From Lonicera japonica (taxonomy: Eukaryota > Streptophyta > Magnoliopsida > Dipsacales > Caprifoliaceae), in contig CM038467.1 in NCBI GenBank assembly GCA_021464415.1, positions 27,893,248 to 27,957,247 of the forward strand: DNA of 64,000 nucleotides, given 5' to 3'. Below the pieces are notes generated by a model. It made no database searches and had not been told where the DNA came from. It was given only the letters and a program-made list of their open reading frames with translations. The position numbers were made by a program, and so were the translations under genes. Of the stretch, positions 6,465 to 34,713 are shown piece after piece; positions within the stretch are counted from its first letter, which is position 1, and the number at the start of each line of letters is the position of its first letter.

Positions 6465-6519
6465 TATAAGGTGTTTTGGTGCAAAGAGGGCAAAGAAAAA
6501 AAAATTCTGGCAGATTAGT

Positions 6520-9510: not shown

Positions 9511-9524
9511 AAGTTGAGGGGAGT
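9511..9524 (+). other. Polypurine tract
   Basis: AAGTTGAGGGGAGT directly abuts the TG that opens the 3' LTR at 9525. This is the plus-strand primer of reverse transcription. Confidence 0.9.
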
Positions 9525-11194
9525 TGATAAACGCATAATATTGTCATGTATAAGCTCTTTCCCGAAGTCGCTTGACGCGTTTGTTGCTTTAATTCTGCCT
9601 AATTATCCTCTTATCTCAAGATTAGTGTCTTAGGGAGTTTTGTATCTAACATCGTCCCGCTAGGTGTGCTTTTGTTGTGTTTCTATGTGTTTATAGGCAT
9701 AGGATGCAATGGCGTTCGAAGAATTGAGCAAGCGCTAGTCAAAAGCTCGCAAAATGCTGATCTGAGGAATTTCCCAGAAGCATGATCGATCATGGGTATA
9801 CCATGATCGATCATGGTGCAAATTGGCCTTCAGAGCAGAGGACCCCATGATCGATCATGGTAGACCCATGATCGATCATGGCCTGGCAGGGACATTCACC
9901 AACTCCTGCTTTTAGCCTTATTTTGGGGGTTTTGGTTCCTAGATATTTCTTTTTGTTTATTTTATTAGTTTTTGTACTCCTTTAGCTATTGTTTTAGTCT
10001 AAGGGAGGAGATATAGATCATTATCTAGGAGACACACTTGGAAGTTCTAGAGAGAAGGAAGAGCTAAAGTTGTATTGTTCTTCATTTTTCCTTGTAAGTG
10101 TTTTGATTTGTAAGAATGATTTCTTCTTCTATAATATTTGTTTTTGCATCTATTATGGAGTAGTCTCTTACTAAGGTTACGGAGGTTGATTGCGATATGA
10201 TTTTTGGTGATTAATGGCTCAATCCATATTTAAAGTTTGATAAATATTTGTGAATCTTCTTCTTTTTCATCATATCATCCATTCTTTCAAGCTTTCTAGG
10301 TATTTTCATGATAAGTTAAGACTTTATATGCCTTGTATATTTAGTTCTTGGTTGTTAATGATCATACAACATATTTATATGGTTCTAGAAAGCTTGTAGT
10401 ATTTTTCCCCCATTCATGGAGTTTTTGACCTTTTTGTAGGAATTATAAATAGTTCATAAAACTCCATAGATGGATTATAAATTTGTTAGCTTATCTTTGA
10501 TTCATTTATTGATATATTGAGTGCTTCTTACACTTTATGTGATACTTAGACTCTTTATTTTCTACCATAAGTGATAAATGATGAGATGACAAATTTATCC
10601 CATAAACCTCATTCCGTTTCGTTGTTAGGATTCACTTTCTAATTTTCATTCTTTAAATCATGAGATATCATACACTCGCTTTATGTTAAATCTTTTTATG
10701 ATGAGTTTGTCATATCTATCTCGGATTAGCTTCATCGGGAATGGGTTGCCTTGCTTCACACCCGTAGCTAAGAGGTAGGAATGATAACCTCGTCTTTGGT
10801 GGAATGTCGTTTGTCTCTTTCTTGATATAGCTTCAATCCGGGAATGAGTCGCCTAGAGTCGCACCCTTTGCTATTGAGAGATACACCAACATTCCCCATA
10901 TCTCGAGAAACCTTGTGTTGAAATCTTTGTATGAGCTAGTGATCACCGTCTCTTAAATCGCAACTAACCTCCACCTACCTTAGTGCTTTCTTATTAATTT
11001 TCACAACTGTTTTACATTTACGTTGTTCTACAACAAACCCAACTCACACAAAATCTGAAAACCGTAAAATCCGTAATCCATTCCATTCCTTTTCACTTAT
11101 CCCTGTGGTTTGACACTCGGACTTCCGAGACTATATTACAACTTGACGTGCCTGCACTTGGGCTATAACACAAAGCGCTATTTTGGCGGCGTCA
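9525..11194 (+). repeat. 3' LTR of the Athila element
   Basis: The LTR is 1,670 bp, begins TGATAAACGC and ends GGCGTCA. From 10358 it matches the window start. The first 360 bp hold four palindromes (9780-9881). Compared with the 5' LTR over 836 bases there are 8 substitutions and a one-base indel. Confidence 0.95.
9780..9881. repeat. Four copies of the 16-bp palindrome in the Athila LTR
   Basis: Copies start at 9780 (first base G), 9801, 9845 and 9866, forming two pairs each spaced 21 bp start to start. They lie in the probable U3 region. Each contains one central CG within ATCGAT. Confidence 0.95.
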
Positions 11195-16489: not shown

Positions 16490-18073
16490 TGTGAGAATCC
16501 GCAAATGCGACCCCCGGGTCTCGTCCCCGTTTGTTTAGGCGTCTGAAACGTCAGAACGGATTCCGTCGTTCCTTTTGCTGGAGTATCTTGGTTGATGGTT
16601 CACATCTGGTGTTCCTAGGTTCTATTTCTAGATGCAAGGGGTTCATTCAGAGTCGCCAGTACGTTTTACGAGAAAACGGACAAAAGAGGTTGTGTAAGAG
16701 GAAAGGCTACAGTTAAGCCTTTCTTTACACGTTTGTCTACGAAACCAGGATTCTATAGGGTTCGGAAACTATATTACGGTTTGGGAAGGTGTTGAGCACC
16801 CATTCCGCCCTTTCGGTCTCTAGTGGTCTTTTATATGTTTATTCTATGTTGAAAAACTTAGATGCTTTTACTGACAGTCTACTACTTTCTAAGTGAAAAC
16901 CCTAATTTTTGGAAAAAGCGAGAAAAGTAATAAAAACCTTTGTATTCCGAGATCCGATGTTTTTATTATTTTGAAAGATGTAAATACAAGTGATAAAAAT
17001 TGTTTTATTTTGAGAGAGAGAGTTTCCCGTATTATTTCCTCGAATAACGATGGTTTTCTCGTATTGTGATTACTTTTGTAAAAGTTCGGATCTTGTATCG
17101 GGACTAATTTAATATGGAATTAGAACTTTTTAGGGGAATTTTATTAGACACGTCGTAGTCTAAAAAGACAGGATATATTGATGTTAATTCCTAGATAAGT
17201 TTTATCAGTCCGGATTTTAAAAACAGGATTTTGTCCGGACGATAATGTACTTATTCTTCTGATTTTGCAAATGATTTTATCAGGGTCTTTTTGTTTTGAA
17301 AACAGCAGACTACTTTGTAACTTGGCAATAAGTTTATTCAAATAAAATGTGGAGTGAATAACAGAAGTAATACAAGTACACAGATATATAATTTAAATAC
17401 TAGAAGAGATTTTCTTTACCTTCCCGACGAGAATAACAATAAGAAAGAAAATATAATACGGTAGAGAGATCTCCGGCAATAATGATCTTTTCCTTCTTTA
17501 AATATTTTCGAGAATTCAATTCCAGAGACGGGACACGTCGAGTGTCATGAATAGATCCGATAATTCTTCAGAAATAAGATTATAACATAAAATACTTGAC
17601 GAAAGACTAGAAAATCAGATATAAGCCAGTAATTCTCCAATTCCCAGTTGTTGTCTTTGAACCCTTGGGGGTGTTGGCCTATTTATAGTGCTCGGGAAAG
17701 ATTGTCGCGCGACACTTCTCCAAAAAGGGCATATGTCGCGCGGCAATGTGTCCAATGTCGCGCGACAAACGGCTAAAGTGATGTTTCTGACAGACTGATT
17801 TGTCAGAGAGTGGATGGTCGGGGTCAGAGGGGTTTGTCGCGCGACACAGAGGTGATTGTCGCACGACATATCAGTGACTGTCGCGCGACATATCAGTGAT
17901 TGTCGCGCGACACACTGATATGTCGTGCGACAATCCCTCTTAAAAATAGGTTTGTTGGCCAACAAACCCTTTCGAGGTAGTTTCGGGTGCTCGGGTGGGT
18001 CTCGGATTCCAAAAATAGTAGTTCTCGAAGGTCGTTAGGGTTCTTGCGGGGGTCACGGATCGGGGTGTCTACA
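16490..18073 (-). repeat. 3' LTR of the Tat element
   Basis: In element orientation it begins TGTAGACACC (18073) and ends CTCACA (16490) next to the target duplication. It carries a TATA box read on the - strand (17680-17687) and eight copies of the 12-bp palindrome. A sequence like the usual Tat primer binding site (TGGCGACTCTG on the - strand, 16648-16658) lies about 160 bp inside the LTR end. A purine-rich tract (GAGAGGGTC on the - strand) abuts the inner edge. Confidence 0.92.
17703..17932. repeat. Eight TGTCGCGCGACA palindromes in the left LTR
   Basis: Perfect copies start at 17703, 17756, 17835, 17879 and 17901. One-mismatch copies start at 17734, 17857 and 17921. Spacings are 31, 22, 79, 22, 22, 22 and 20 bp. 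The right LTR has the same layout with one 22-bp unit fewer. A 20-bp perfect palindrome GGTTTGTTGGCCAACAAACC follows at 17949-17968. Confidence 0.95.
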
Positions 18074-18281
18074 GACCCTCTCGACTCAAGTTTCTTGCTT
18101 GCAAGGAATTGAGGCGACTGGAAGAGACCATGATTCATGGCTCCCGCAAGAACTCTAAGGAAGTGCGTGTATGCGAAAAGTGTTCGTGAATGCCTCCGGA
18201 GAGGGCTTTGTGTTTGGTTTTACCTCCGGAGAGGGCTTCTGTTACCTCATTGCCTCTTTCGAGGATTTTTATTTTGCTCCA

Positions 18282-18842
18282 CTTGCCTCAGATGGGAGGA
18301 CTACCATTACTCCACTATGCCTCTCTGGGAGGGCTTTGTTCTTCTCGCCTCAGGTGGAAGGACTACCATTGCTACACTGTGCCTCTCTGGGAGGGCTTTC
18401 GATCTTCTTGCCTCAGTTATGAGGACTACCATTGCTACACTGTGCCTCTCTGGGAGGGCTTTCGATATTCTCGCCTCAGGTGGGAGGACTACCATTGCTA
18501 CACTGTGCCTCTCTGGGAGGGCTTTCGATCTTCTCGCCTCAGGTGGGAGGACTACCATTGCTACACTGTGCCTCTCTGGGAGGGCTTTCGATCTTCTCGC
18601 CTCAGGTGGGAGGACTACCATTGCTACACTGTGCCTCTCTGGGAGGGCTTTCGATCTTCTCGCCTCAGGTGGGAGGACTACCATTGCTACACTGTGCCTC
18701 TCTGGGAGGGCTTTCGATCTTTTCGCCTCAGGTGAGAGGACTACCATTGCTACACTGTGCCTATCTGGGAGGGCTTTCGATCTTCTCGCCTCAGGTGGGA
18801 GGACTACCATTGCTACACTGTGCTTCTCTGGGAGGGCTTCGC
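18282..18842. repeat. 63-bp tandem array, about nine copies
   Basis: The unit contains CTCTGGGAGGGCTTTCGATC, CGCCTCAGGTGGGAGGAC and CACTGTGCC. The period is exactly 63 bp (21 codons), so several frames on both strands stay open across it. The array lies just inside the 3' LTR of the Tat element. I regard the open frames as by-products of the period. Confidence 0.93.
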
Positions 18843-19764
18843 TCTGAAAAAAGGAAAGAAAATTGCCTCTGGGAGGGCTTTTGTGAGTATTTTTGCTTTG
18901 GCGAGGGCTTGTGTTTGTGATTTGCCTCGAGGAGGGCTTGTGTTGTATTCCGGTGATGATGGTTGTCTCTCTTAGACTGCTAGAGTAAGAGAGAGAAATT
19001 TTAGTGAGAGTGAAAAGAGCTTCTCGAGGTCTAAACTTTATCTGGATGTCCGTTTTCCTGTATCTTTCTGAATTTTATTCTCATGTTTTCCTCGAATGAG
19101 GATATTTCTCTCAGAAGAAAGTTTTTGGATTTCTTTTGCTCTCCGCAGAGTGATGATTCGAGGTTTTCCAAACCATCTCTCCTATATTATGCTGAAAAGA
19201 AAATTTATTTGAAAGTTCAATCTCTGATCTCTGTTCTCTTCTTAGTTTTCTCTTTTGGTGGGCCCACATCGTATTCTGTTTTTTGATGCCCTTATTTCTC
19301 CCTCTTTTGGGAAAGACTTTTCCTGGCCTTCTCTGTTTTTGATCAGTTTTTTATCCCTTTGTCGTGATCAGGAGCCTTACTTACCCAAAACGAAGCCCTG
19401 AGCCGGTTTTGGCCTAACTGTCACTTTTGGTGCGGCTCTCCCTGTCACTCTGCATTTCTATTTCTCTCGCTCGCTTTGGGCACTCATGCGGGCTCTTTCT
19501 CTTTTCTACTTTTTCAATTTTTTCTTATTCCCATCTTATCTTGCTATTTTTCTCTTTCTCATTGATGGTCTCGGAGATCAGAGATTACTTTAATCATTGT
19601 ATTTTGTTCTCATATTTTTCGGAGAGATGATTTAGAAGTCTTTCCTCGAATTTTTCATACTGGGTGTGCGATTTTTAGCAAGTTTTTTGAAAACTGCTTC
19701 TCTGGAGTACCCCTGCAGGAGATAAAATGAGACAAAAGTCAAAAAATCAGGGGGAGGATCAATG
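18843..19764. other. Tat 3' non-coding region between array and antisense promoter
   Basis: Pyrimidine-rich sequence on the + strand, with no supportable ORF. It ends at the first palindrome of the antisense promoter module. Confidence 0.6.
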
Positions 19765-19848
19765 TGTCGCGCGACACTTCGGTCTGGGGCTCTTTGTCGC
19801 GCGACAATGTGCCCATTTGTCGCGCGACAAACAGCTTCACTATATAAG
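19765..19848 (+). promoter_or_regulatory. Antisense promoter 1: three TGTCGCGCGACA palindromes and a TATA box
   Basis: Perfect palindromes start at 19765, 19795 and 19818 (spacings 30 and 23 bp). TATATAAG follows at 19841-19848, and the start codon of the plant-mobile-domain gene lies at 19986. The stretch is homologous to the LTR cluster read on the + strand: palindromes separated by about 31 and 22 bp, with matching CACTTC, CAATGTG and CAAACGGCT/CAAACAGCT flanks. The LTR lacks a + strand TATA at the corresponding place. Confidence 0.8.
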
Positions 19849-19985
19849 TCCCTTGCTGAGCTCATTCCACCTCATTCTCTCATTTCTCTTTCTTTCTCTA
19901 GCTTTCTTTCTCTCTTCTCTCAAGCGCGGAAGCCCTGCCGCTTTTCTGATTTTTTTGACTTTCTCACTACTCTCCATATACACAG

Positions 19986-22900
19986 ATGGATCCTGCATAG
20001 CTGGATCGACTCGAGGGTGACCAGGAGGAGGTCACTTTTATCGACGCTCAGGGCGTTCTTCGTTGCAGTCCTCATCATGACGATTGGGAGGACCTCGACT
20101 GGTACGGTGAGGATAGGGTGGACCGCGGTCGGGCGGTGGTCTACCGTGACGTCACTCGGGATGCTCCAGTCCCGAATGTTCCGTGGCTCTTGATGGAGCC
20201 CGTTTCTCATGAGATCCGTCGACGGTCTCTGGTATGTCTTCTTTTCGTGTATTTATCTGTTTTGTTATTTCTGTCGTTTCCTGGATGTATTTTAAACAAT
20301 GTTAGTATGCATATCTGCCTAGAAATAACGTCCGATTTAGTGAACACATACTTTTTACCTGTGATACCTCTTAGGTTATGGAAAATTACATAATGTACCC
20401 TTATAGCCCTATATCTCTCATAATTACACCAAAGTACCCGCAGGTTTGAAAAATTACATATTTTACCCTTATAACCCTATATCTCTCATAATTACACCAA
20501 AGTACCCTCAGGTTTTGGAAAATTATATAATTTACCCCTATAACCCTATATATCTCATAATTACACCAAAGTACCCTCAGGTTTTGAAAAATTACATATT
20601 TTACCCCTATAGCCCTATATCTCTCATAATTATACCAAAGTACCCTCAGGTTTTGGAAAATTACATAATTTACCCCTATAGCCCTATATCTCTCACAATT
20701 ATACCAAAGTACACTCAAGTTTTGGAAAATTACATAATTTACCCCTATAGCCCTATATCTCTCATAATTACACCAAAGTACCCTCAGGTTTGGAAAATTA
20801 CATAATTTACCCCTATAGCCCTATATCTCTCATAATTACACCAAAGTACCCTCAGGTTTGAAAAATTACATAATTTACCCCTATAGCCCTATATCTCTCA
20901 TAATTACACCAAAGTACCCTCAGGTTTGGAAAATTATATAATTTTACCCCTATAACCTTATATCTCTCATAATTATACCAAAGTACCCTCAAGTTTGGAA
21001 AATTACATAATTTTATCCCTATAACCTTATATCTCTCATAATTACACCAAAGTACCCTCAGGCTTGGAAAATTACATAATTTTACCCCTATAACCTTATA
21101 TCTCTCATAATTACACCAAAGTACCCTCATAATCATGTACTCATTCTTTTGTTTGCAGTGGGTTGGCTGTGGTTGGGGTTCTCCCAACACCATTTCTTTA
21201 GAGCGGCGACAGGCACCGGCCCCTGTCTAGGAGTTGCTCCTTGCGACTCCTTTCGGTTCTTTCTTCGATGCCCTCCCGGAGCGGGTATCTAGGGCAGCTG
21301 TGTTGGTGTCGGCTCTGGCCTATCACTGGTGGGACACCACTCATACCTTCCACTAGAGCTGGGGGGAGATGACGATGACCCCGTTAGACCTGTTTGCCTT
21401 GACCGGGATTCCTTCAGGGGGTGTCCCTATCCAGATTGACGTCCCTTTGCGTCTGACGGTAGAGGGTATAGTCAGTGAACTAGGATGGTTTCCGGAGCGA
21501 CGGAGTTCCGGTGATACGATTCCTCGGGCTGTTTTGGTCACGCGCCTAGTGACAGAGAGAGCCAGATTGATTGCTTCAGGGGCGCCGATGACCCTCCAAG
21601 AGGCACGTCAGTATGCCCGCGTCCTCCTCTTACTGACTCTCCACGATTTGTTCGAGGCCCGTGGGGGGGACCCGGCCCATCTCTGGTGGCTTCCCTATCT
21701 TCGTGATTTCAGTATTATGTTCGACTACGACTGAGGTGGTTTTATTCTTGCCGTCCTCTATGATGCTATAGACCAGGTTTCTCGCCACTTACCCCTGAAC
21801 CTCAAGGGCTTCTCTTTGCTGTGGGAGGTATACACTTCTGTTCCCTTATCTGTGCTTTTGGTCTTTTTATCTGCTGATTGTTGCTAATGTTTTTTATGTC
21901 TCTTTTTCCAGAGTTGGTTCATGGCTTATACCCGTCTGGGTCGCGCCCAGGTGGATCTCCTCGTTGAGAAGGAGGATCAGTTTCCCCTTCTCCCTCGATT
22001 CATCGCGGGGAACTACAGGGCTCCATATGTATACCGGACTCGGGAGACCGGAGCTGCTGCCGTCCATGACCTGCTGGAGGAGCATGTAAATATCTTAGTA
22101 TTCTTATTTTCAATAAATAAATAGTAAAATAAAATATAAATAATTGAAATAAAATTTCGTTCTCTTTTTAGGTTGAGTGGGCCCCCTGGGGTGATATGGT
22201 CCTTCATTTCGGGTATGGCCTTGCTCTGACCGCCTCGAGGACCAGGCGGCTTATCAGGAATGAGTACGGCCTTCACTTCTATTTGGGTGAGAGAGTTATC
22301 CGCCAGCATACCCCGGCCCAGTGGCCTAGAGTTCCTTTGTTTCCATCGGTTCTGATGAGGCAGACGGGTGAGATTGACCCGGTGACGGTGCATGCGTTGA
22401 TCGACAGGCTCGATTTTCATACATTCACCGAGGAGGGAGATTATGCTATCTTCGCTGCCTGTTACTTGATGAGGGAGCCGAAGGGGACCCGAGGACGAGT
22501 CTTCTATGAGAGATACCGGGCGTTGAGGGGTGATCCTAACTATATACGAGGACAGACTCATTTGTCCTGGGTGATTCCCGGTCAGCTGCCGCATGTCCCT
22601 GATCAGAGGGACAATATTTTGGATTCTGACGATGATGACCCTGAGGGATAGAGGGACATCCCTACTGGTGCTGAGAGAGGCGATGATAGGCCCGAGGGTG
22701 GTGATGATAAACCCGAGGGCGGTGAGGGAGGCGGAGCAGCGGCTGTTCCAGAGCAGCCTCCTCAGACGTCGCCTAGAGAGGAGCAGCCTGTCGAGGGTTT
22801 TGAGTTCCTTACTGGTCCATCGGTATCTCCGGGGATAGTTTTTGATGCTGTGGAGGCCGCTGAGGGAGGGGCGGTAGATTTTTCAGAGCGATCCTGGGAG

Positions 22901-23764
22901 CCTGCGGACTTCGGGGTCGACTATGAGCAGTTTGGGCGGATCCCTCCTGCTGCTGTGACCACTCCTTCTAGCGGGGTCCCGCCTCTGAGAGCGACGGCCA
23001 TTGTGGATCCTCCGGGCGTCCGTACTTATGCTACACTGACTCCGCTTCCATCGGCTGCTATGGGCCCTCCGGCCCGATCTCTAGGTTTCGGAGGTTTTTC
23101 TTCCTGGCCTCCCCTATTCCCGATCCGTGAGGAGGGTGGGTCCACTTCTGCTGCTGTACCGGCGGGTTCGTTTGTTCATCCGATAAACCTGCCACCACTT
23201 CCTTGGGATATCTCTTATATTGGCGCCGGTCTACGTCGATATACGGTGCCTGGGTATCCTCTTCCTGAGGATACATTCGATTACTTGGGTGGTCGTTCTG
23301 ATGATGAGGTATAGGTTTTATCTTCCCTTAATATCCCTTCATATCCATGTTCATTTATCTTTACTGTGCTGATTATTTCCTTTCTGTTTTTGCAGCGGGT
23401 GAGCTTGCGTGTGGCGGATCTGAGGGCTTGGCACTCCCAGTATCTATATAGCTGGAACCTGCTTCAGTACGTTGGTCGAGACCCTACGATTTATATGCGC
23501 GACTACCAGAGGGCGATCGATGTTTCCCTGCGGGCGGATGACCCTTTGTCTTCCTCTCGTGCTAGGACGGAGTCTCGGCGGAGTACCAGTCGGACCTCTA
23601 AGCGATCCCGGTCTTCGGTGATTTGCCCTACGGCGCCGATCCAGTCGTCGGGGCCTTCTCAGGCAGCAGTTCCTTCTCACCCGGATGTCCCAGTGGTAGA
23701 TCCTACGCCGGAGGAAGGTTCTGGCGATAGTGGTAGCGTGTCGAAGCGCACTAGGATATATTAG
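19986..23764 (+). pseudogene. Antisense plant-mobile-domain gene of the Tat element, five exons
   Basis: Exons 19986-20231, 21159-21827, 21912-22085, 22172-23308 and 23396-23764 join with GT-AG introns, all in phase 0, for about 865 codons. Exon 2 has the plant mobile domain (aminotransferase-like PMD) signature THTFH.SWGEMTMTPLDL followed by FALTGIPSGG. The C-terminal exons are acidic, Pro/Gly-rich and end in a basic SRRSTSRTSKRSRS tract that could be a nuclear signal. Cellular PMD proteins (MAIN/MAIL family) act in gene and transposon silencing; what the retrotransposon copies do is not established. Stops at 19998, 21228, 21354, 21732 and 22649 break this copy, though the splice frame is intact. 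Confidence 0.75.
20381..21131. repeat. 68-69-bp tandem array in intron 1 of the antisense gene
   Basis: There are about eleven copies of a unit containing TATATCTCTCATAATTACACC and variants, with a period of 68 or 69 bp. The array fills most of the intron 20232-21158. Because 69 is divisible by three, short ORFs appear on both strands; they have no family resemblance. Confidence 0.93.
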
Positions 23765-24083
23765 TTTTCTTTTTCCTGCATTTAGTTAGTTTAGACAGAT
23801 ATGTACATGTTTAGACATAAATCTAGTTTTGAAAACTGTTCTTTTATTGGATTTATGAAAAATCTTTATTTGTGTCTGATGATGTATTTTTTCCTTATCT
23901 GCGATGAAAAGATAATAATTTACGTGAATCGATCATTTAGGAGTCATACCTTTGTGATGTGGCAGTACTTAAGGTTCCTACAAAAGAACAGAGTGAGCAC
24001 AAAATGCATCCAGAAGTGATTCTTTTGGCAAGAATAACTCCTATGTATAAGAAAAGCAAAAATAGGGTGACACCAAAGGGGAT

Positions 24084-24161
24084 TGTTGCGCGACAATCCC
24101 TCCTGGACATGGGTTTGTCGCGCGACAAACAGGCACAGGACCCTCTTTTTTGCTATAAATA
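24084..24161 (+). promoter_or_regulatory. Antisense promoter 2: two palindromes and a TATA box
   Basis: TGTTGCGCGACA (one mismatch) starts at 24084 and a perfect TGTCGCGCGACA at 24116. TATAAATA follows at 24154-24161 and the start codon at 24201. The first palindrome's flank GCGACAATCCCTC and the GGTTTGT that follows match the far end of the LTR cluster (17921-17955). So this module derives from a different part of the LTR cluster than antisense promoter 1. Confidence 0.78.
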
Positions 24162-24200
24162 CACCCATCTTCCTTCCTTCATCCCCACACCTTTCCCAAA

Positions 24201-25456
24201 ATGTCTTCTTATCGTACAAACTTTGATTTTTCTTACGTTAATGCTCGAGATGCTCTAATATCTTCTGAAAACGGCTTGAATTTTGGTACTTTTAGCCCTT
24301 TAGCAGGCTGGTGCCATCGTCCTATAGATTTTTCCTTTTTTGCTAGGCGCTTTGTATTTTTGGAGCCCTGCGGATCATCTTTTTCGTTTTGGGCTAGATG
24401 AGCTCTGCCCGACTTATGAAGAGTTCTCCTGGTTGTTGCATTCTGATGTTCGTCTTCTGATGGCTGTTCCCATAGAAGAAATCGGTCCTCGAGATATGCT
24501 GATTGCTCTGTTGGCTATTCCCCAAGCGGCCTGTGATGGTTTTATTGTCGACGGGCTTCTTGACCTCCATAAAATAGTGAGTTTTTTTCATCATTATGAA
24601 GAGAGAGCTTCTTATAGTGTGGGGCGTACTGCGGCGGCCTTGATCTATCTTATTTCCGATATGTTACTGGTGACGGGCTCTTCCTGTATTGATCCGACTA
24701 TTCTGAGTCTGATTTACCATGTTAGGAATGGGGAGTCCATAGTGCCTATCGTTCTTGCAGAGACTTTGAACGGCCTAGATGATCTCCAAAGGGGAGCCTC
24801 ACCCTTTTTCAAGGGAAGCCCTCATTTGCTGTACATGTGGTTGTTGGAGCATTTCCGATCGGTGGGTTTCAACGGGGTGCGACTTGACAACCCGACACAC
24901 TTTTTCTGTCGTTCTCTTTGGTGCTTTGACCATGTCTTCCTCTGATTGGACGGTGTGGTTTTTGGAGAACTTTCGGGCTATCCTGTGGAACATTCCTTGG
25001 TGGAAGCTGAGGGCGATGGTGCTTAGTACAGGGGGTCAGAACTATGTTCGGCTCCGTGGACTCTGGTTTACCTCTTTTTATCTCCCAGGACGTCTTCTTC
25101 GGCAGTTCAACGTTCCTAAGGATATTCTCCTTGGTCTGAACAACTTCTCCTCTGAGTCTAAATTTGTGACCCCGTATGTTTCTTTATCGGTAGAGAGGAT
25201 GTGGCGTGCTCGACTGACTCGTCAGTTCAACTATGCCCGTTTCGATATTACCAGGCCCCTCCGGGCTGACATCATCTGTTCTCGTTGGGGGTCTTTGGAA
25301 GGGGAGCTAATTGATGATCCCTTCCAAATGGAGTGGTTCCAATTCATGAATTCTGAGCCTACAGAGAAGAGTATTGTCCTTGCGTACCAGATCTTTGATG
25401 AGGCTCGAATTGACTTGGCTACTGAGGACCCTGCTTGGCCAACCCCTAGGGATTAG
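24201..25456 (+). pseudogene. Antisense DUF7745-like ORF of the Tat element, two frameshifts
   Basis: The single exon starts at the ATG at 24201 and ends at TAG 25454. It resembles the plant family DUF7745, often annotated next to gypsy elements; the telling part is DELCPTYEEFSWLL near 24400. I know no established function. The reading shifts frame around 24330-24360 and again around 24905-24945, so about 418 codons are split over three frames. The frame is otherwise clean and the conserved core readable, so decay is recent. It converges on the integrase end (25677) with about 220 bp between. Confidence 0.65.
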
Positions 25457-25676
25457 GTTTTTCTGTATGCTGTATCTCCTTTATAACTTTCGGTGTTCTG
25501 AACCACCTTAATAATGTATGAAGGACTATTCTATGGGAAATAAATTTCTTTACAAAGTTTAAACCGAGCCTGAAGTCACTTCTCAGGTTGCCTACGTTCC
25601 CCTTTTTGATTTTACAAAGAACAAAAGTTTGAGTTGGGGCTCAGGTTTACGTATTTCTTATCTATTCACGTTACAT

Positions 25677-26810
25677 CTATTGATAATACTTCTTCAGATG
25701 ATCTATGTTGACAGGTGAATGCAGTAACTGTCCGTCTAAGTCAATGAGTATAGCGGCACCCCTTGTATCGATCTCTTTGACGATGTACGGCCCTGTCAAC
25801 TTCTGTCCAAACTTTCCCCTTGGGTTCCTGGCTGACTCTCGAATTTCTTTCAATACGATATCTTTCTCATTGATACCCCGAGTCTTCACTTCCTGGTTAA
25901 ATGCTCGAGCAATTCTCTTCTGATACCCTTGGTGGTGGTACGCGGCTTTCAATCTTTTTTCATTAAGTATGGCCAGCTCATTATAACGTGCCTAGACCCA
26001 CTCCAGTTCATTGACTTGATTCTCTAGCATTACTCTGAGAGAGGGGACCTCTAACTCAACAGGGAGGACTGCTTCCATCCCGTATGTAAGAGAAAACGGG
26101 GTTACCCCGGTGGAGACCCTCTCGGTGGTGCGGTATCCCCACAATGCGTATGGTAATTTCTCTGGCCAGTCCCAGCAGGTGTCGGTCATCTTGCTTAGGA
26201 TATTCTTCAGATTCTTGTTGGCGGCTTCAACTACCCTATTGGTTTATGGTCTATACGGCGAAGATCTGTGTTGGGTAATACCGTATTCCTCCATGACGGA
26301 ATTAGCCTCTCCTTCGAAGTGAGTGCTGTTGTCCGAGATGATCTCGTGTGGGACCCTATACCGACATATGATATTCCGTCTGATGAATCGGGCAACTTTT
26401 CTGGCGTCAAGGGTTTGGAAAGACTCGGCTTCTACCCATTTGGTGAAGTAGTCGATATTCACTAGTATGAATTCATGGCCGTTACTAGCTTTGGGCGGAA
26501 TCTTCCCAATAATGTCGATTCCCCAGTTTGCAAAAGGCCAGGGAGCAGTCATGTTGTACAATTCTTTCGGGGGGAGCTTCTGGGATTTGGCATAGATTTG
26601 GCACTTGTGGCAACGGCGCACGTGGTTAACGCAGTCGTTCTGCAGGGTAGACCAGTAATATCCTTGCCTGATGATTTTACGAGCGAGTGTATGACAGCTC
26701 ATATGAGGTCCACAATCACCCCCATGTATCTGATCCATCACTTTGACGGACTCTTCTTTAATGAGACATTTAAGATGGGCTCCGTCGTAATTTCTCTTGT
26801 ATAGCCTCCC
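25677..26810 (-). pseudogene. Tat integrase
   Basis: On the - strand an HHCC domain (HGGDCGPHM ... CHKC) lies near 26600-26735. The catalytic core shows WGIDIIGKIPP, EIISDNSTHF and VVEAANKNL, supplying the D, D and E. The C-terminal module ends with HLKKYYQ at the stop 25677. Two in-frame stops split the core, one just before the catalytic Glu (near 26240) and one near 25990. Confidence 0.88.
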
Positions 26811-26918
26811 GGTGCAAAGTATGAATCTTGATCCTAATCTCCTAAGCGTAACCCGGGTTCTCTTATCTGCTTGCTCGGGATACCGACGGTTTTTTAGCAG
26901 GTTCCAAATGTCGTAAAA

Positions 26919-27425
26919 CTAGGCGGTTAAGTTCCTGTTTTCTTCATTCTCTACCTCAAGGGTCATGCAGTGTGCTGGTCCCGATTTTCTTTGTACTGTA
27001 AGAGTTATTTCTTCCATCCCCTCCGGGATATCGATCATAGATGCCAGGGTTGCTAATGCCTCAGCAAAACTGTTTTGTGACCTGGGTATATAGTAGAACT
27101 TCGAATGCTCAAATCTTCCGGTGACATCCTCCAGCCGGGCAAGGTAAAGGACTAACTTTTCATCTCTGATCTTCCATTCCTTTAGAACTTGGTGGACCAC
27201 TAATGCCGAATCTCCGTACACTTGTATTCTCTTTATACCCTTTTGGAGTGCGATATCTAACCCGATTATACAGGCTTCATACTCGGCCATGTTGTTGGTG
27301 CAGAAGAAGTCTAATCGATACGATACCGGGGAGTGAGTTTGGTCTGGAGAGACTAACAGGATGCCTATCCTATTTCCGTTTTGGTTGGCGGCCCCGTCAA
27401 AGTACAGTTTTCAGTCTTCATCGAT
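26919..27425 (-). pseudogene. Tat second RNase H (archaeal type)
   Basis: The domain starts with YFDGAANQNGNRIG, then NNMAEYEACIIGLDIAL, GDSALVVHQ and SQNSFAEALA. These supply the Asp, Glu, Asp and final acidic residue of an active RNase H of the archaeal/plant-cellular type. This additional domain between RT-RNase H and integrase marks the Tat lineage. A TGA precedes YFDGA, and a TAG ends the segment at 26919. Confidence 0.85.
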
Positions 27426-27575
27426 CTTGACATTCATGATAGTTTCGTCCGAGAATTCAGCTTCTTTTAGCATGTCTCCCAATATCGAATTGTGGGCCAG
27501 GTAATCAGCTATGATCTTGCCTTTGACTGCCTTCTGGGTCATGTAGGTGATGTCAAATTCGGAGAGTAAGAATAA

Positions 27576-28940
27576 TTATTTTACCATGCGGTTCGAGAGA
27601 GCCGGTTTCTCGAAGAGATATTTCAATGGATCAATTCGTGATGCCAAGATGACCGAAAAAGCCAGCATGTAATGCCGTAATTTCTGTGTTACCCAGATGA
27701 GGGCGGCGCATGATTTCTCCAATGGTGTGTAGTTTATCTCAAATGGGGACAATTTCTTGCTGATGTAATAGATGGCCTGTTCTTTCAGTGTATCGGTCAG
27801 ATGTTGGGCTAGCATGGCTCCTACGGCCGAATCAATGACGGTCAGGTATAGAATTAGTGGCAGTCCAGTCTGTGGCGGGGCTAATACTGGGGGTTTGAAG
27901 AGGTAGTCTTTTATTCTATCAAAAGCTTCCTGGCACTGACCGTCCCATTCTCCTGGTGAAGACTTCCTCAGGAGTTTGAAGATGGGTTTGCAAGTTTGAG
28001 TAAGCTGAGAGATGAACCTGCTGATGTACTGCAAATTACCCAAAAATCCCTGGACTTCTTTCTCGGTACGAGACTCGGGCATGTCTCGGATAGCTCAAAC
28101 TTTGGCAGGATCTACCTAGATTCCCTTTTTACTGACGACATAGCCTAGGAGCTTTCCTTTGGTCACCCCGAACACACATTTTTGCGGATTAAGTCTCATC
28201 TGGTACTGGCGGAGGCGGTCAAAAAAGGCTCGTAAGGCTGGTACATGGCCTTCTCTTTCTTTTGACTTGATTATCATGTCATCCACATACACTTCTACTT
28301 CTTTGTGAATCATGTCGTGGAAGATAGCGGTTGCTGCCCTCTGATATGTTGCTCCGGCATTTTTCAGCCCGAATGGCATAACGGTGTAGCAGTATGTTCC
28401 ACACGGTGTGATGAATGCTGTTTTCTTTTGGTGATCCGGATGCATTTTGATTTGATTATACCCGGCGAAACCATCTACAAATGACTTCAAGGCATGGTTG
28501 GCGGTATTATCCACTATCAAATCAATGTTGGGTAATAGGAAATCGTCTTTCGGGCAAGCTTTATTGAGATCTCGGTAATCTACGCACATGCAGACTTTCC
28601 CATTTGCCTTTGAAACGGGCACAATGTTGGCTAACCATGAAGGGTATTCGATTACCCGCAAGAACCCCACACTCAGTTGTTTCATCACCTCTTCTTTCAT
28701 TTTCAGGGACCATTCTGGCGTAAGTTTTCTCAACTTCTGCTTGACGGGCCTAAATTCCAGCTTAGTGTGTATCTCGTGCATGATTATCTGGCTGTTCAAA
28801 CCTGGCATATCTTCATAGGACCAGGTGAAAATATCCACGTACTTATTTAAAGTTTGTGTGAATTCCTCTCTTTCTGTCTCACTTAGACTTGCCCCAATAC
28901 GGACCTCTTTTCTTTCCTCTCCTGTCCCTAGGTTAATCAC
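27576..28940 (-). pseudogene. Tat reverse transcriptase with its own RNase H
   Basis: RT motifs are CVDYRDLNKACPKD, GFAGYNQIKM, MPFGLKNAGATYQR and YVDD (28278-28289). The connection GFLGNLQYISRFI follows, then the first RNase H with NYTPLEKSCAALIWVTQKL. This RNase H seems to have lost part of its catalytic set: the first Asp position reads YLTVIDSAVGAML, and SRIDPLKYL stands where TDHxxLKYL is usual. In-frame stops fall between 28082 and 28116 and at 27576. Confidence 0.88.
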
Positions 28941-29908
28941 AAGAGTGTCTCCTTCCTCGGTCTGTATACGCTGCTCCTCCCATTCAGGGTGTTAGTTTAG
29001 TTTTTCCAACTCCATATAAGCAATTACAGAATTAAAATCAACAAGATAACGCAAAATAGAGTTTTCTTCATTGATAATAGCGTTTACAGGTACAAGTTTA
29101 AACAGTAAATCTAGGAGTGACTCCTCCCTAGCCTTACCCTCACTCTTGTCTCTCACCCTTACAATTTCACTCCTTCCCCCTTTTTCTTGGTAATCTGGAT
29201 CAGCGTGTATCAAGTGTACAGGATCGTCTCTTGGCTAATTATCCCCTAGAGCCATGATGTCGAAGAGATCTCCAATCATTTCTTCCTCTTCATCTTTCTT
29301 GTCTTCATTTTCTTCTCTTGGACCGATTGTTAACTTGGTGGAGAAGCTGTGTATAGTGTTTTCCTTGATATAAAGGTCCTCTTTGTAGAAGATTTCCCAT
29401 CTTGGAAGGTTATCTCCGTCGCTGTTTCTCCAAGGCTCCTAAAAGCCGCAAAAGGGGAAGTCCTCTCCGTCTTTGACAAAAAATCCATTCAGAGAGTTAA
29501 AACTCGGATACTGATGCCCTCGACCCTTTTTCTCTTGGTTGTCCTCTTCGGTGCGTTGGTACTCCAACTTTTCTCTTTCATGCCTCATTACCGGTACTAA
29601 GGCCTGAAGTAACCCTGGCTGCCCTATTCCTAGACTGGCTCCAGGTAAATATTTCATCATTCTAGCATATTTGTGATCTTGGTGCTGAGACCGGGGATAT
29701 TGTCAGGGGGTAGATACTCGATTCTTTGGGTGGTGAGAGCTTGTACTTGAGGCCCGTAAGAAAAGCTTCCCAGCTGTATGCTCTGACTCTCGATGTCCAA
29801 TACAGGTAACTCCAGATCCGTCAAGGTCCTTTCAGGATCTCATTGGACGGTGATTATATTCCCTTCGAACGGTATCTTGATCTTCTGGTGTAAGGAAGAG
29901 GGGAGTGC

Positions 29909-31100
29909 TCATATGTCGTGTAGCCATGTTCTTCCCAACAGGAGGTTAAAATTAGAGAAAATGTCTATGATTTGAAAGTCGGCTGGAAAGTTCCCGGGAC
30001 CGACCATGAGATCTAGCTTTAAGGAACCCAGAACGGCCCTTCTGATGTTGTCATAGGCTCTAACGGTCACAGCTGACGGAGAAAGTTCTGAGTCTAAGAT
30101 ACCCAGACATTTGGCAGTTTTCAAAGGGCAGACATTTATGGTTGACCCGTTGTCGATGAGGACCTACGGCAGGATTTTCCCTCGGGTCCGGACAGTAATA
30201 TGGAGGGTCAGACTGTGTTTCTTCCCTAATGGAGATAAGTCTTCATCTGAAAATGACAGACTTTTTTAGATTGTAAGGGACCCGATCATGTTTGGTAGTT
30301 GTTCTGGTGTGGAATCTGGTGATATGATGACCTCGTCTAGGAGTTTGATGAAGGCGGTCCTGTGAGGTTTGGAGGCAACCAAGAGGCCCCAAATGGTGAT
30401 GTGTGCCTGAGTTTTCTTCAACTGTTCCAGTACTTGATCTTCTCCTATTTCCTTAGGAGGTGGTGATTTCTCGGCATCCCTTGGCGGTGGCTGGTATAAC
30501 CTTCCTGAACGGGTAATTTGTTGTTTCCAAAGGGATGCTGGGTCTGATTCATCTGAGATTTTTGATGACTCTGGCTCTGCCAACCAACTGAAAGTTTCGG
30601 GGGAGGTTTCTGTCATACAGATTGTCTCCTTGGGGGGGTCTCGGGGCTTCCACGGCGGTTTTTTCTTGTCATGGGTTCATTCTATCCCAGATTTTCCGGG
30701 ATTGGTTTTGATTATAAGTGGTTGTGAGATCCCCTGATTGGCCTTTCCTAACCCCTGCCCGGGTAGGAAGTTCATTTTAGCTATCCATTGGTCAATTATC
30801 GGATTGAGGCCTGGGGCCACTTAAGCCTTTGCTAGCAGTACAATGGGCGCCTTGTAGGCTGGGTTATCTCGAATGAGTCCTACGGGATCAAAGCCTTCTT
30901 TATCAGTGGTTAAGGCGTTAATCCCCGCAGGTGGAGCATGGTTAGGAAGGGGGTTGTTGGTAACATTGGATACGATGGTTTCGGCTTCAATGAGGTCCTA
31001 GATATGATGGCGAAGAGCAAAGCAGCGGGCCATGACTGCCAAGCAGCGTTCCGTGTCATGGCCCGCTGTTTGATGGTATGCACAGTTCTCGTTCATTTTC
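29909..31100 (-). pseudogene. Tat nucleocapsid knuckle, G-patch-like segment and protease
   Basis: Read on the - strand, a CX2H-type knuckle (CAYHQTAGHDTERC) lies near 31041-31092. A glycine-rich MNFLPGQGLGKANQG segment resembling a G-patch lies near 30728-30790. The aspartic protease active site DNGS is at 30142-30153, and the flap/end region NLLLGRTWLHDI is at 29909. DNGS in place of DTGA or DSGS is usual in Tat elements. Several stops interrupt the segment (for example near 30160, 30266 and 30680). Confidence 0.75.
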
Positions 31101-31161
31101 TAGGTGTTGGGAATAGGGTTTGGTGGGGGCACGGGTTGAGTGGAGTGATCAGTCCGGCCTT

Positions 31162-32666
31162 TCAGAGTAGTTCCAGGCTTTTGACCAGGGTAGTGAGAAG
31201 GGTGCAGAAGTTTCTTCTTTTCTTGGCCTCGGTGCTCAAAAAATCTCCTTGTGCAGGCCAACTCATCGAAGGGGCTTGTTGTGACTGTTGGAAGGGATTT
31301 TGTTGATAGGGGTATGAGCTTAGTTGATTCACAGCTGGAGTGGCTGTCTTTCTCCCAGTGTATGAGGCTTTCTTGGTATTAGTCTCTGCCTTTTTGGCCA
31401 ATTCTTCCTCTACTTGCGACCCCATACTCAACAGGGTTCTGAAGTGTGGGAACACATGCTTTCCCATGCAACTCAGTACAGCTGGGGTGAAATTCTTCTG
31501 TATGATCTCCAACTGCTCTTCTTCATCGGGTCGTTTGGACATTTGGGAGGCCATCTCTCTCCAGCGTGTGACGAAGTCGCTAAAGCTTTCTTTCTCGCCT
31601 TGCTTGGACATTTCCAAGTGTTTACGGGTAATTTCCAAATCCTCGTTGGACCCGTATTTGGTCATGAACTCCTTGACGATATCCCCCCAAGTTTTTGTGT
31701 GGTGTCTCTCCAAATCGAAAAACCATATCAGGGCGGCACCTGTGAGAGTCATATAAAAGGCTTGAGCCAACTCCGGCTCTCCGCAATCGGACACTTGCAT
31801 AGATCTGATGTAGGATTGGAGGTGAATTTTCGGGGGTGTGGTTCCTGTGAATTTGGTGATGGAAGGGAGCTTGAATCCCTGGGGTAATCTTGCTTCTGGA
31901 TAGAGGGAGAAGGCATTCTATCTGTAATTTCGTCTGGCCCTTTTATTAGGGAAATTCCCCTTTGCAGAATTTTCATCTGCTCTTTTAGTTTTTTCATTTC
32001 TTCACTTTCTCTCGAGACCTTATCGGGCTGTTCCCGAGCTATAACCGATTCTGCATACACTGCCCGAAGTCGGTTGATGTCTGGGTACTCATTAGGAGGG
32101 GCTACCGGGGCCGGTGGTGGAATAGGTCTTGCGGGGACTTGTGGCCATGGCTGGTATTGGGGATCAAGGCCTTGCTGAGGTTGTGGCCAGATGATGGGTG
32201 GCTCCTGTTGTTGGTAAGTGGGGCCTGAATCAAGGGCCCATTAATTTTGGTTATTGGGATCAGTCTAAACGGGACCGAGTGGGATAGGACCCGTTTGCTG
32301 TGGGTTGGTTCCTTGAACCGGGGGAAGTACTTGCGATGATTGCCCTTGATTCTGATCTCGATTTGGTGGTAGTCGTTCAAACCCCGGTGGTGCGGCCCGT
32401 CCGGCTGACAACTCTTCTACTCGAACTCGGGTACTCTGTTGCTCGTTCGTGAGGTTTGCTAGACTCATGCTGACGGTCATTAGCAAACGATGCATCTCGG
32501 CTAAAGTTGGCTGAGGTGCAAACGCCTCGGCAAAGCTCTGATCTGTCTCTTGATCCTCGCGTCCATCGTCCATTTCGGGTGTGATTGGTCTTACTAGTCT
32601 TTCGGTATGATCTTGACCGGCCCAACCTTCCAGACTGTCGTTGTTTATGGCTGTAGACGAAACCAC
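31162..32666 (-). pseudogene. Tat gag
   Basis: The N-terminal part (from the ATG at 32666) is low in structure and Gln/Pro-rich. The conserved gag core lies at 31350-31800 and contains LTGAALIWFFDLE, ITRKHLEMSKQGEKESFSDF and RWREMASQM. A one-base frameshift near 31885-31900 separates the two parts, and stops occur at 32265 and shortly after. The core is the retrotransposon-gag fold of Tat elements. Confidence 0.85.
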
Positions 32667-33143
32667 GTGGCGAAGATGAAGGAAGGCTACGATGCGACTC
32701 GATTTTTGCCAAAAGAACCAATAAAAATTGCCGAAAAAAGACTCAGGTTTTAAAAAGGTGTTGTAAAGTAAGCCGTAAGGTGGTACATCCCCTATGGCTA
32801 TTTGACAAGTGTTTTAGTCGACTCGATCTTATATGCAGCGCAGGTGTACGAACGGTTAAGGCTTCAAGCTCCCTCCTATTTGGCAAGACCTTACGATATA
32901 CCCCAGGGGCGGGTACGTGCAAGAGTCTTTTGATATACTTCCCGGGTACGTGAGTGTTCTCGTCACTTGATATACCTCGGGGGCGTACTTAGCCAAGGAG
33001 AGTGGAAGTAAATGCTTTCGGTTTATGTTGGCCCAAGCAAGCCAACTCCCTACTCACTTATAATACTTCCGAGGGTTTGGGGTAAATTCACACTCGTAGA
33101 ACCAATGCATGATTTGTGAAAGTGTGTGCAAAGTTCGAAAGGT
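32667..33143 (-). other. Tat leader between 5' LTR and gag
   Basis: There is no ORF of note. Three degenerate repeats of about 45 bp (GATATACnnC...GGGTACGTG type) lie at 32892-32995. No good primer binding site is seen directly next to the LTR edge at 33144. Confidence 0.55.
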
Positions 33144-34708
33144 TGATTTCAGAATCCGCAAATGCGACCCCTGGGTCTCGTCCCCGTTTGTTTGGGCGTC
33201 TGAAACGTCGAAACGAATTTCGTCGTTCCTTTTGCTGGAGTATCTTGGTTGATGGTTCAATCGGGTGTTCCTAGGTTCTATTTCTAGATGCAAGGGGGTT
33301 CATTCAGAGTCGCCAGTACGTTTTACGAGAAAATGGACAAAAGAGGTTGTGTAAGAGGAAAGGCTACAGTTAAGCCTTTCTTTACACGTTTGTCTACGAA
33401 ACCAGGATTCTATAGGGTTCGAAAACTATATTACGGTTTGGGAAGGTGTTAAGCACCCATTCCGCCATTTCGGTCTCTAGTGGTCTTTTATATGTTTATT
33501 CTATATTGAAAAACTTGGATGCTTTTACTAACAGTCTACTACTTTCTAAGTGAAAGCCCTAATTTTTGGAAAAAGCGGGAAAAGGAATAAAAACCTTTGT
33601 TTTCCGAGATCCGATGTTTTTATTATTTTGAAAGATGTAAATACAAGTGATAAAAGTTGTTTTATTTTGAGAGAGAGAGTTTCCTGTATTATTTCCTTGG
33701 ATAACGACGGTTTTCTCGTATTGTGATTACTTTTGTAAAAGTTCGGATCTTGTATCTGGACTAATTTAATATGAAATTAGAACTCTTGAGGGGAGTTTTA
33801 TCAGACACGTTGCAGTCTAAAAAGACAGGATATGTTGATGTTAATTCCTAGATAAGTTTTATCAGTCCGGGTTTTGAAAACAGGATTTTGTCCGGACGAT
33901 AATGTACTTATTCTTCTGATTTTGCAAATGATTTTATCAGGGTCTTTTTGTTTTGAAAACAGCAGACTACTTTGTAACTTGGCAATAAGTTTATTCAAAT
34001 AAAACGTGGACTGAATAACAGAAGTAATACAAGTACACATATATATAATTTAAATACTAGAAGAGATTTGCTTTACCTTCCCGACGAGAATAATAATAAG
34101 AAAGAAAATATAATACGGCAGAGAGATCTCCGGCGATAATGATCTTTTCCTTCTTTAGATATTTTCGAGAATTCGATTCTAGAGACGGGACACGTCGAGT
34201 GTCATGAATAGATCCGATAATTCTTCAGAAATAAGATTATAACATAAAATACATGACGAAAGACTAGAAAATCAGATATAAGCCAGTAATTCTCCAATTC
34301 CCAGTTGCTGTCTTTGAACCCTTGGGGGTGTTGGCCTATTTATAGTGCTCGGGAAAGATTGTCGCGCGACACTTCTCCAAAAAGGGCATATGTCGCGCGA
34401 CAATGTGTCCAATGTCGCGCGACAAACGGCTGAAGTGATGTTTCTGACAGACTGATTTGTCAGAGAGTGGATGGTCGGGGTCAGAGGGGTTTGTCGCGCG
34501 ACACAGAGGTGATTGTCGCGCGACATATCAGTGATTGTCGCGTGACACACTGATATGTCGTGCGACAATCCCTCTTAAAAACAGGTTTGTTGGCCAACAA
34601 ACCCTTTCGGGGTAGTTTCGGGTGCTCGGGTGGGTCTCAGATTCCAAAAACGGTAGTTCTCGAAGGTCGTTAGGGTTCTTGCGGGAGTCACGGATCGGGG
34701 TGTCTACA
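33144..34708 (-). repeat. 5' LTR of the Tat element
   Basis: It matches the left LTR from 33151 onward; the first seven or so bases at the inner edge differ. It starts TGTAGACACC on the - strand at 34708. The old-looking primer-site sequence TGGCGACTCTG (- strand, 33305-33315) is inside it. It contains seven palindromes, one 22-bp unit fewer than the left LTR. Confidence 0.92.
34337..34567 (-). promoter_or_regulatory. Tat LTR promoter: seven palindromes upstream of a TATA box
   Basis: On the - strand TATAAATA (34337-34344) is preceded by palindromes starting (+ coordinates) at 34360, 34391, 34413, 34492, 34514, 34536 and 34556. The last two have one mismatch. Gaps are 31, 22, 79, 22, 22 and 20 bp. 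The nearest palindrome lies 15 bp upstream of the TATA box. This is the promoter for genomic RNA. Confidence 0.8.
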
Positions 34709-34713
34709 CCTAG
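34709..34713. other. Target site duplication CCTAG, right copy
   Basis: Identical to 16485-16489 on the other side of the nested retrotransposon. Confidence 0.9.

What the first reader, a model, noticed from the sequence alone, without database searches (positions are those of the whole stretch)
16490..34708. One retrotransposon, three promoters, one shared palindrome
TGTCGCGCGACA, a perfect 12-bp palindrome, occurs about 20 times in the Tat element (14 perfect, 6 with one mismatch). I find it only in three settings: 7-8 copies upstream of the LTR TATA box, three copies 11 bp upstream of TATATAAG before the antisense plant-mobile-domain gene, and two copies upstream of TATAAATA before the antisense DUF7745-like ORF. 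Adjacent sites are mostly 20-23 bp or 30-32 bp apart. The antisense modules share flanking bases with two different parts of the LTR cluster, so they look like LTR-derived promoter copies. Seen: sites, spacings, TATA boxes. Inference: a common DNA-binding factor, possibly element-encoded, coordinates sense and antisense genes.
Basis: partly seen in the sequence, partly recalled or inferred. Interest (0 to 1): 0.92.

Follow-up and report, generated by a model that had tools for sequence, protein, structure and literature searches.

The report
Retrotransposon promoters sharing a private palindrome
A large plant retrotransposon carries the same short mirror-like DNA word in front of its main promoter and in front of two backwards-running genes of its own, and a sister family keeps the same layout with a different word, as if each family had its own private switch and perhaps its own protein to work it.

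Summary
Confirmed: 20 copies of TGTCGCGCGACA (14 perfect, 6 one-mismatch) lie only in three promoter settings of a minus-strand Tat-like element (16491-34708). The host assembly holds 49,456 against 219 for the reversed word. Of 20 relatives chosen by the antisense DUF7745 protein, 19 carry the site. Sites are kept better than spacers despite three CpGs each; pieces of both antisense genes show dN/dS 0.16. Beyond the finding: a sister family (RT 78% identical) has the same layout with another palindrome, CCGTACGG, in LTR, PMD-gene and DUF7745-gene promoters (one copy read throughout; before the DUF7745 gene in 20 of 20 further copies, against 0 of 20 in the first family). An Athila-like element in the window has a third palindrome in U3 and before its extra ORF. 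The array was copied, not the core promoter: TATA boxes lie on opposite sides. Best reading: family-private operators read by one trans-acting factor, probably element-encoded, as with VANC of VANDAL transposons. Binding and transcription starts are untested; a recruited host factor remains possible.

The parts
16491..34708 (-). Tat-like Ty3/gypsy retrotransposon
   Evidence: LTR pair, gag/RT/RNaseH/integrase on the minus strand, 5-bp duplication CCTAG at 16486-16490 and 34709-34713
16491..18073 (-). 3' LTR
   Evidence: blastn to 5' LTR, 95.0% with gaps; 57 mismatches in 1560 aligned bases
33147..34708 (-). 5' LTR
17703..17968 (.). U3 operator array of the 3' LTR: 8 sites plus variant palindrome 17949-17968
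34360..34603 (.). U3 operator array of the 5' LTR: 7 sites plus variant palindrome 34584-34603
17680..17687 (-). 3' LTR TATA box (TATAAATA on the minus strand)
34337..34344 (-). 5' LTR TATA box (TATAAATA on the minus strand)
19765..19829 (.). P1 array: three perfect sites, 30 and 23 bp apart
   Evidence: same triple in other copies
19841..19848 (+). P1 TATA box TATATAAG
19986..23764 (+). antisense plant-mobile-domain gene, broken in this copy; introns inferred by eye from GT-AG borders only
   Evidence: open pieces; Pfam PMD only E 0.2 here, but the family B counterpart (pieces 43-57% identical) has E 6.4e-23
24084..24127 (.). P2 array: two sites, 32 bp apart
   Evidence: 20 other copies
24154..24161 (+). 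P2 TATA box TATAAATA
24201..25456 (+). antisense DUF7745-like gene, broken by frame changes in this copy
   Evidence: homologues P0001-P0013; family B counterpart PF24924 E 3.8e-6
28119..28940 (-). reverse transcriptase piece
   Evidence: PF00078 E 7.8e-28
26922..27290 (-). additional RNase H-like piece between RT-RNase H and integrase
   Evidence: PF13456 E 5.1e-18
26247..26741 (-). integrase piece
   Evidence: PF00665 E 1.3e-9
31165..31800 (-). gag piece
   Evidence: PF03732 E 6.2e-11
6521..6686 (.). second element: five CATGATCGATCATG palindromes between pol and the extra ORF
7080..7778 (+). second element: extra ORF with Transposase_32 domain, sense orientation
   Evidence: PF20167 E 2.2e-21
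9781..9880 (.). second element: four CATGATCGATCATG palindromes in the presumed 3' LTR U3 (LTR start near 9525 judged by eye)
   Evidence: LTR body 10358-11195 matches window 1-837 at 98.9%

Best explanation
The palindrome is the operator of a small element-borne regulon. A dimeric sequence-specific protein binds the arrays in the LTR U3 and upstream of the two antisense genes, and so switches genomic-RNA synthesis and the accessory genes together. Because each site is symmetric the array can work towards either side, which is how the same module serves a leftward LTR promoter and rightward antisense promoters. The most likely binder is an accessory protein of the element itself (the PMD protein, the DUF7745 protein, or both), acting as activator or anti-silencing factor, so that accessory genes and LTR form one feedback loop; site and protein change together between families. 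Shown: sites, settings, conservation over spacers, purifying selection on pieces of both antisense genes, a different palindrome in the same settings of a sister family. Inferred: dimer, binding, identity of the binder, activation rather than repression.
For: Enrichment 49,456 versus 219 in the assembly. 19 of 20 copies chosen by protein carry the site before the DUF7745 gene, 18 of 20 with TATAAATA 26-27 bp beyond. Sites versus spacers: P1 97.2% versus 72.2% in 6 copies, P2 95.0% versus 82.0% in 5 copies; P2 96.7% versus 81.5% in 16 distinct copies. Sister family B: CCGTACGG in LTR, before PMD and before DUF7745, 18 of 20 matches at up to one mismatch in the three settings, a TATA word after both antisense arrays. 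Reciprocal control on 20 plus 20 copies: two or more CCGTACGG in 20 of 20 B copies and 0 of 20 A copies; TGTCGCGCGACA in 19 of 20 A copies and 0 of 20 B copies; B total 77 against 3.1 in shuffles. Accessory proteins diverge much more than pol between families (PMD pieces 43-57%, DUF7745 38-40% and one 26-residue piece 69%, against RT 78%, INT 76%; gag 44%), yet dN/dS within family A is 0.16 for a piece of each (RT 0.12, INT 0.10). Many listed copies keep open frames of 431-449 aa (A) and 436 aa (B). A third palindrome in the same layout in an Athila-like element. VANC proteins bind short motifs amplified as tandem repeats in their own transposons (PMC5735166, passages).
Against: No binding or transcription data. 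PMD proteins are not shown to bind DNA in the passages read (PMC7156037 and PMC9899485: direct or indirect action on the DOWN motif left open). AlphaFold model uninformative (mean pLDDT 44.7); no solved relative of the DUF7745 profile. Because modules are shared between LTR and antisense promoters, one host factor could also give one word in all three places. In the window's P2-like LTR pair, sites (18 of 24) are no better kept than the spacer (14 of 20). Gag diverges as much as the accessory proteins, so fast change is not theirs alone.
Confidence: 0.55

Rival explanations
1. The arrays bind a host transcription factor recruited by the element (from recall: TGTCGCGCGACA resembles E2F-type TTTCGCGCGAAA and holds auxin-response-factor half-sites TGTC; CCGTACGG holds the GTAC core of SBP/SPL factors). 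Different families recruited different host factors; the antisense genes use the same factor because their promoters were seeded with LTR modules.
For: Common way for LTRs to gain promoters (recall); shared modules between LTR and P1/P2 are shown, so one word in all three places needs no element protein.
Against: Needs another word in three promoters of one family while the layout is kept. No motif library of host factors was on hand, so this rival was not tested directly.
Confidence: 0.3
2. Passive repeats: the palindromes are remnants of a tandem or LTR-derived duplication with no regulatory role.
For: 22-bp tandem units in the LTR, 30- and 32-bp unit gains in some copies.
Against: Spacers between sites are at 31-32% identity within the window while the 12 bp are at 96% (sites chosen by motif); sites beat spacers in copies chosen by protein; the P2 arrays sit before a TATA box in 18 of 20 A copies and 16 of 20 B copies.
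Confidence: 0.07
3. RNA- or DNA-structure role (packaging, dimerisation, strand transfer, recombination) of palindromes in the genomic RNA.
For: Palindromes occur in the U3 part of genomic RNA; symmetric differences leave GGTTTGTTGGCCAACAAACC a perfect palindrome.
Against: A loop-less 12-bp palindrome is a poor RNA hairpin (reasoning, not folded here); the arrays sit directly upstream of TATA boxes, two of them for antisense genes.
Confidence: 0.05

Closest known systems
VANDAL transposons with VANC anti-silencing proteins (PMC5735166, passages; PMC10398659, abstract)
   Same: Short motif specific to one TE family, amplified as repeats in non-coding DNA of the element, differing between related families together with a fast-changing element-encoded protein.
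   Different: VANDALs are DNA transposons; the VANC21 motif YAGTATTAY is not a palindrome and no LTR or antisense gene is involved; binding is shown there, not here.
Antisense accessory ORFs of Retand, Grande and RIRE2 (PMC11963269, parts 1-3 of 5 read; PMC7264820, passages)
   Same: Antisense ORFs between pol and 3' LTR; Grande gene23 has its own promoter and a nuclear product; a regulatory, DNA-binding role has been proposed.
   Different: PMC11963269 names TRP28 as the usual domain of Retand, which was not found in the pieces scanned here; the text read mentions no operator shared by LTR and antisense promoters.
Plant mobile domain proteins: MAIN/MAIL1 (PMC7156037, PMC9899485, PMC8616336, passages) and PMD in plant Gypsy elements (PMC9289625, passages)
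   Same: PMD family, presumed TE-derived; PMD inside plant Gypsy elements is already known; [quoted passage not shown]
   Different: MAIN/MAIL1 are cellular genes linked to the DOWN motif (example CATGCAGTTT), not to an element-private palindrome.
Retroviral regulators and antisense genes (HTLV HBZ, TAT; as discussed in PMC11963269)
   Same: Element-encoded regulators, some from antisense genes.
   Different: Unrelated proteins (recall); a palindrome shared by three promoters is not part of that account.

Membership tests
Tat clade of Ty3/gypsy | gag-RT-RNase H-integrase order with a second RNase H | tested here: met
   Retrotrans_gag, RVT_1, RT_RNaseH, RVT_3, rve in order on the minus strand
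Tat clade of Ty3/gypsy | antisense ORFs between pol and 3' LTR | tested here: met
Tat clade of Ty3/gypsy | position in an RT tree | not tested
Retand lineage | TRP28 domain (PF04195) in an antisense ORF | tested here: inconclusive
   no TRP28 in 10 antisense pieces of the window copy nor in 3 pieces of family B; copies broken and the whole region was not scanned
Plant mobile domain family (PF10536) | Pfam match above the curated cut-off | tested here: met
   family B counterpart 81.9 bits, cut-off 34.9; the window piece itself only 11.2 bits
DUF7745 family (PF24924) | Pfam match above the curated cut-off | tested here: met
   family B counterpart 26.6 bits, cut-off 26; the window piece itself only 12.9 bits
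VANC-type anti-silencing system | element-private motif repeated in non-coding DNA, different between related families | tested here: met
VANC-type anti-silencing system | element protein binds the motif and removes DNA methylation | not testable with these tools
   needs binding and methylome data
VANC-type anti-silencing system | VANC homology of the protein | not tested
   no VANC sequence was compared; Pfam gives PMD and DUF7745

The most novel reading that the evidence does not exclude
Plant Ty3/gypsy elements of at least two lineages (Tat and Athila) run private, swappable transcription circuits: each family has its own palindromic operator in the LTR U3 and before its accessory gene(s), and the accessory protein (PMD, DUF7745, Transposase_32) is the matching DNA-binding factor, a retrotransposon counterpart of VANC; host PMD proteins such as MAIN and MAIL1 descend from such factors and inherited DNA-site recognition.
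Probability: 0.4. Interest if true: 0.93.

Novelty: new variant of a known kind. Interest (0 to 1): 0.86.

Why it matters
The function of antisense accessory ORFs in plant LTR retrotransposons is stated to be unknown in the two papers read on them (PMC11963269; [quoted passage not shown] This gives a concrete, falsifiable link: a defined 12-bp probe, a matching pair of candidate proteins, and a natural swap experiment (family A word and proteins against family B word and proteins) in one genome. If right, retrotransposons evolve private regulators much as VANDAL transposons do, and a host silencing family may trace to a transposon-encoded site-specific factor.

Tried and rejected
Bacterial and viral collections: the paired word gave 8 bacterial stretches (only their base composition and site context were looked at), none in viral contigs, and two viral stretches with a looser word, not read further; protein scans of viral contigs found no relative. 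Structure: AlphaFold on an 11-row alignment gave mean pLDDT 44.7, so no fold search was run. PDB by sequence: one chance-level match (2m1b, E 0.31) for the Transposase_32 piece, none for DUF7745. Helical phasing: most spacings in the window are near whole turns, but 79 bp is out of phase and the usual 19-bp spacing of family B is 1.8 turns, so phasing is not claimed. LTR-LTR comparison cannot test selection: 2 mismatches in 96 site bases against 55 in 1464 others. The PMDa row (dN/dS 0.6) compares stretches that are out of register, because tblastn splits the match there; it was dropped. Rfam: no match at the gathering scores. P1 in 8 stretches placed by distance: 5 hold the whole array, 1 is cut at its edge after the first site, 2 have none.

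A third Tat-like region in the C3 block (about 63-77 kb) has 18 matches to GATTNNCCGTACGGNNAATC at up to 3 mismatches, but its borders and genes are unresolved; kept as a lead only.
Full report
WHAT IS THERE. The element is a minus-strand LTR retrotransposon at 16491-34708, flanked by CCTAG duplications, with gag, RT, RNase H, a second RNase H-like piece and integrase. Its LTRs differ at 57 of 1560 aligned bases. Between pol and the 3' LTR lie two genes in the opposite direction. TGTCGCGCGACA occurs 20 times with at most one mismatch, all in the element, against 0.44 expected even at two mismatches. Eight sites are in the 3' LTR, seven in the 5' LTR, three before the first antisense gene (P1) and two before the second (P2).

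WHAT WAS COPIED. P1 matches the three TATA-proximal LTR sites in order, including the letters between sites (5 of 20,000 random draws score as high; the best wrong order scores -10 against 5), and P2 matches the distal end of the LTR array (14 of 20 spacer bases, 3 of 20,000). Both modules keep the LTR's plus-strand order. The LTR promoter runs leftward from the left side of its array, P1 and P2 run rightward from the right side. So the array is shared and the core promoters are not. Symmetric sites make this possible. The LTR counterpart of the second P2 site is a different perfect 20-bp palindrome, GGTTTGTTGGCCAACAAACC. Which copy came first is not known.

CONSERVATION. Within the window, non-homologous sites agree at 95.9% while the 8 bp on either side agree at 31-32% (random 25%; 59 pairs; the sites were chosen by the motif, so this alone is circular). 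The host assembly of 886 Mb has 49,456 forward matches at up to one mismatch against 219 for the reversed word. To avoid choosing by motif, 20 copies were taken from the 150 scored matches to the DUF7745 piece (3398 candidates) and the DNA upstream was read: 19 of 20 hold at least one site with at most one mismatch, 16 hold two or three, 32 bp apart, and 18 of 20 have TATAAATA 26-27 bp beyond the last site position. In the 16 distinct rows that could be anchored (14 of the 20, plus the window and a block copy; 6 of the 20 lacked the 10-bp anchor and were dropped), sites agree at 96.7%, the spacer at 81.5%, upstream 81.1%, the TATA and leader side 89.8%. For P1, six copies (four of them found through the motif, two not) give sites 97.2%, spacers 72.2%, upstream 66.1%, downstream 88.3%; for P2 five copies in the same call give 95.0%, 82.0%, 69.6% and 92.5%. 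The one-mismatch sites carry C-to-T or G-to-A changes at CpG; sites with two or three mismatches have others as well. Of 8 stretches placed by distance from the DUF7745 match, 5 hold the whole P1 array (one with an added 30-bp unit and so four sites), 1 is cut at its edge, 2 hold none.

THE ANTISENSE GENES ARE REAL GENES. In the window copy they are broken and score below the Pfam cut-offs. Their counterparts in a sister family are above them: PMD E 6.4e-23, DUF7745 E 3.8e-6. Between the window copy and another family-A copy dN/dS is 0.16 for a DUF7745 piece (162 codons) and 0.16 for a PMD-gene piece (157 codons), close to RT 0.12 and integrase 0.10. Open frames of 431-449 aa (family A) and 436 aa (family B) recur in many of the listed copies. 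Homologues at 74-79% identity over 62-65% of one PMD-gene piece are annotated in Lonicera macranthoides.

THE SWAP. A 100-kb block taken without regard to its content (C3:40000001-40100000; a second block, C2:30000001-30100000, held no TGTCGCGCGACA or CATGATCGATCATG at one mismatch) holds a sister family, here called B, with 98.5% identical LTRs. RT is 78% identical to the window's, integrase 76%, gag 44%, PMD pieces 43-57%, DUF7745 38-40% apart from one 26-residue piece at 69%. It has no TGTCGCGCGACA at up to two mismatches. It has CCGTACGG in the LTR (4 and 4), before the PMD gene (3, one with a mismatch, 19 bp apart, TATAAAT following) and before the DUF7745 gene (7, three with a mismatch, TATAAAT following); 18 of 20 matches at up to one mismatch in 8 bp fall in these settings. 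Of 20 further B copies chosen by protein from 115 scored matches (7 at 95-97%, 13 at 88-92% identity), 20 have two or more such sites upstream; 48 of 57 spacings are 18-20 bp, 8 are 13 and 1 is 56; 0 of 20 have TGTCGCGCGACA; 16 of 20 have one of four TATA words looked for, 19 bp (13 copies) or 38 bp (3 copies) beyond the last counted site. The sites total 77 against 3.1 in shuffles, and the 20 family-A stretches have none. The same layout with another word is the result that goes beyond the finding. P1 and LTR of family B were seen in one copy only.

A SECOND LINEAGE. In the same window an Athila-like element (lineage named from recall; plus strand; RT, RNase H and integrase) has nine perfect CATGATCGATCATG: five between pol and an extra ORF with a Transposase_32 domain (E 2.2e-21), four in the U3 of the 3' LTR. 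Its flanks beyond the site agree at 26-35%. In a search of the 64 kb for palindromes of 10 to 16 bp with at least four copies and some G+C, these two words and their extensions were the only ones. In this element the extra gene runs in the sense direction, and no clear TATA box was found. Its genome-wide count could not be had (server busy).

HOW IT MOST LIKELY WORKS. A symmetric site, repeated at family-typical spacing upstream of TATA boxes, kept while spacers drift, and different as a set between families, is best read as an operator for a dimeric factor that ties LTR and accessory genes together. An element-encoded binder is favoured because the accessory proteins change fast between families while staying under purifying selection (gag changes as fast, so this is not unique to them), and because VANC proteins give a worked precedent (PMC5735166, passages). 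A review has suggested that transposons may make PMD proteins to counter silencing (PMC8616336, passages), and DNA binding has been predicted for the TRP28 antisense proteins of Retand (PMC11963269). Module sharing between promoters means that a recruited host factor cannot be excluded.

PRINT. The exact words were searched in the held library: TGTCGCGCGACA occurs in one paper on a chicken gene, ATGATCGATCAT in three on yeast VDAC and leopard DNA, listings only. Searches on plant mobile domain with retrotransposon and antisense, on antisense ORFs of Tat and Retand (20 of 52 listed) and on palindromic LTR sequences with antisense promoters listed no title or abstract start that reports such shared arrays; most subscription papers and bioRxiv preprints are not held.

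Noticed in passing
window 1-837, 2320-11195: Athila-like element, LTR parts 98.9% identical, with nine perfect CATGATCGATCATG palindromes in U3 and before a Transposase_32 ORF: same layout as the Tat element with another word.
   Followed up: partly
L045-L054 (C3:40063684-40077338): A third Tat-like region with 18 matches (up to 3 mismatches) to the 20-bp palindrome GATTNNCCGTACGGNNAATC, several within repeated stretches; borders unresolved.
   Followed up: partly
L035-L044 (C2:30036239-30036838): Eleven TAAATGCATTTA palindromes 41-104 bp apart, and TCAGTCGACTGA twice 40 bp apart at 30044043; element context not examined.
   Followed up: no
window 18285-18839 and 20365-21129: Tandem arrays of 63 bp (8.8 copies, near the 3' LTR) and 69 bp (11.1 copies, in the presumed first intron of the PMD gene).
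   Followed up: no
window 33120-33147: No TGGCGACTC-type primer-binding site directly after the window copy's 5' LTR, whereas family B has TGGCGACTC directly after its LTR; a TGGCGACTC lies inside the window LTRs instead (by eye).
   Followed up: no
window 18123-18161: Inverted copy of the LTR end (34667-34705, 79% over 39 bp) just inside the 3' LTR border.
   Followed up: no
window 23553-23760: Carboxy-terminal stretch of the PMD gene product is rich in R/K/S (RRSTSRTSKRSRS), like a nuclear localisation signal (by eye).
   Followed up: no
window 60788-62991: Minus-strand open frames with leucine-rich repeats resembling a plant resistance-type gene (by eye).
   Followed up: no
window 43272-44741: Minus-strand open frames resembling the RNase H end of a LINE-type element (by eye).
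   Followed up: no
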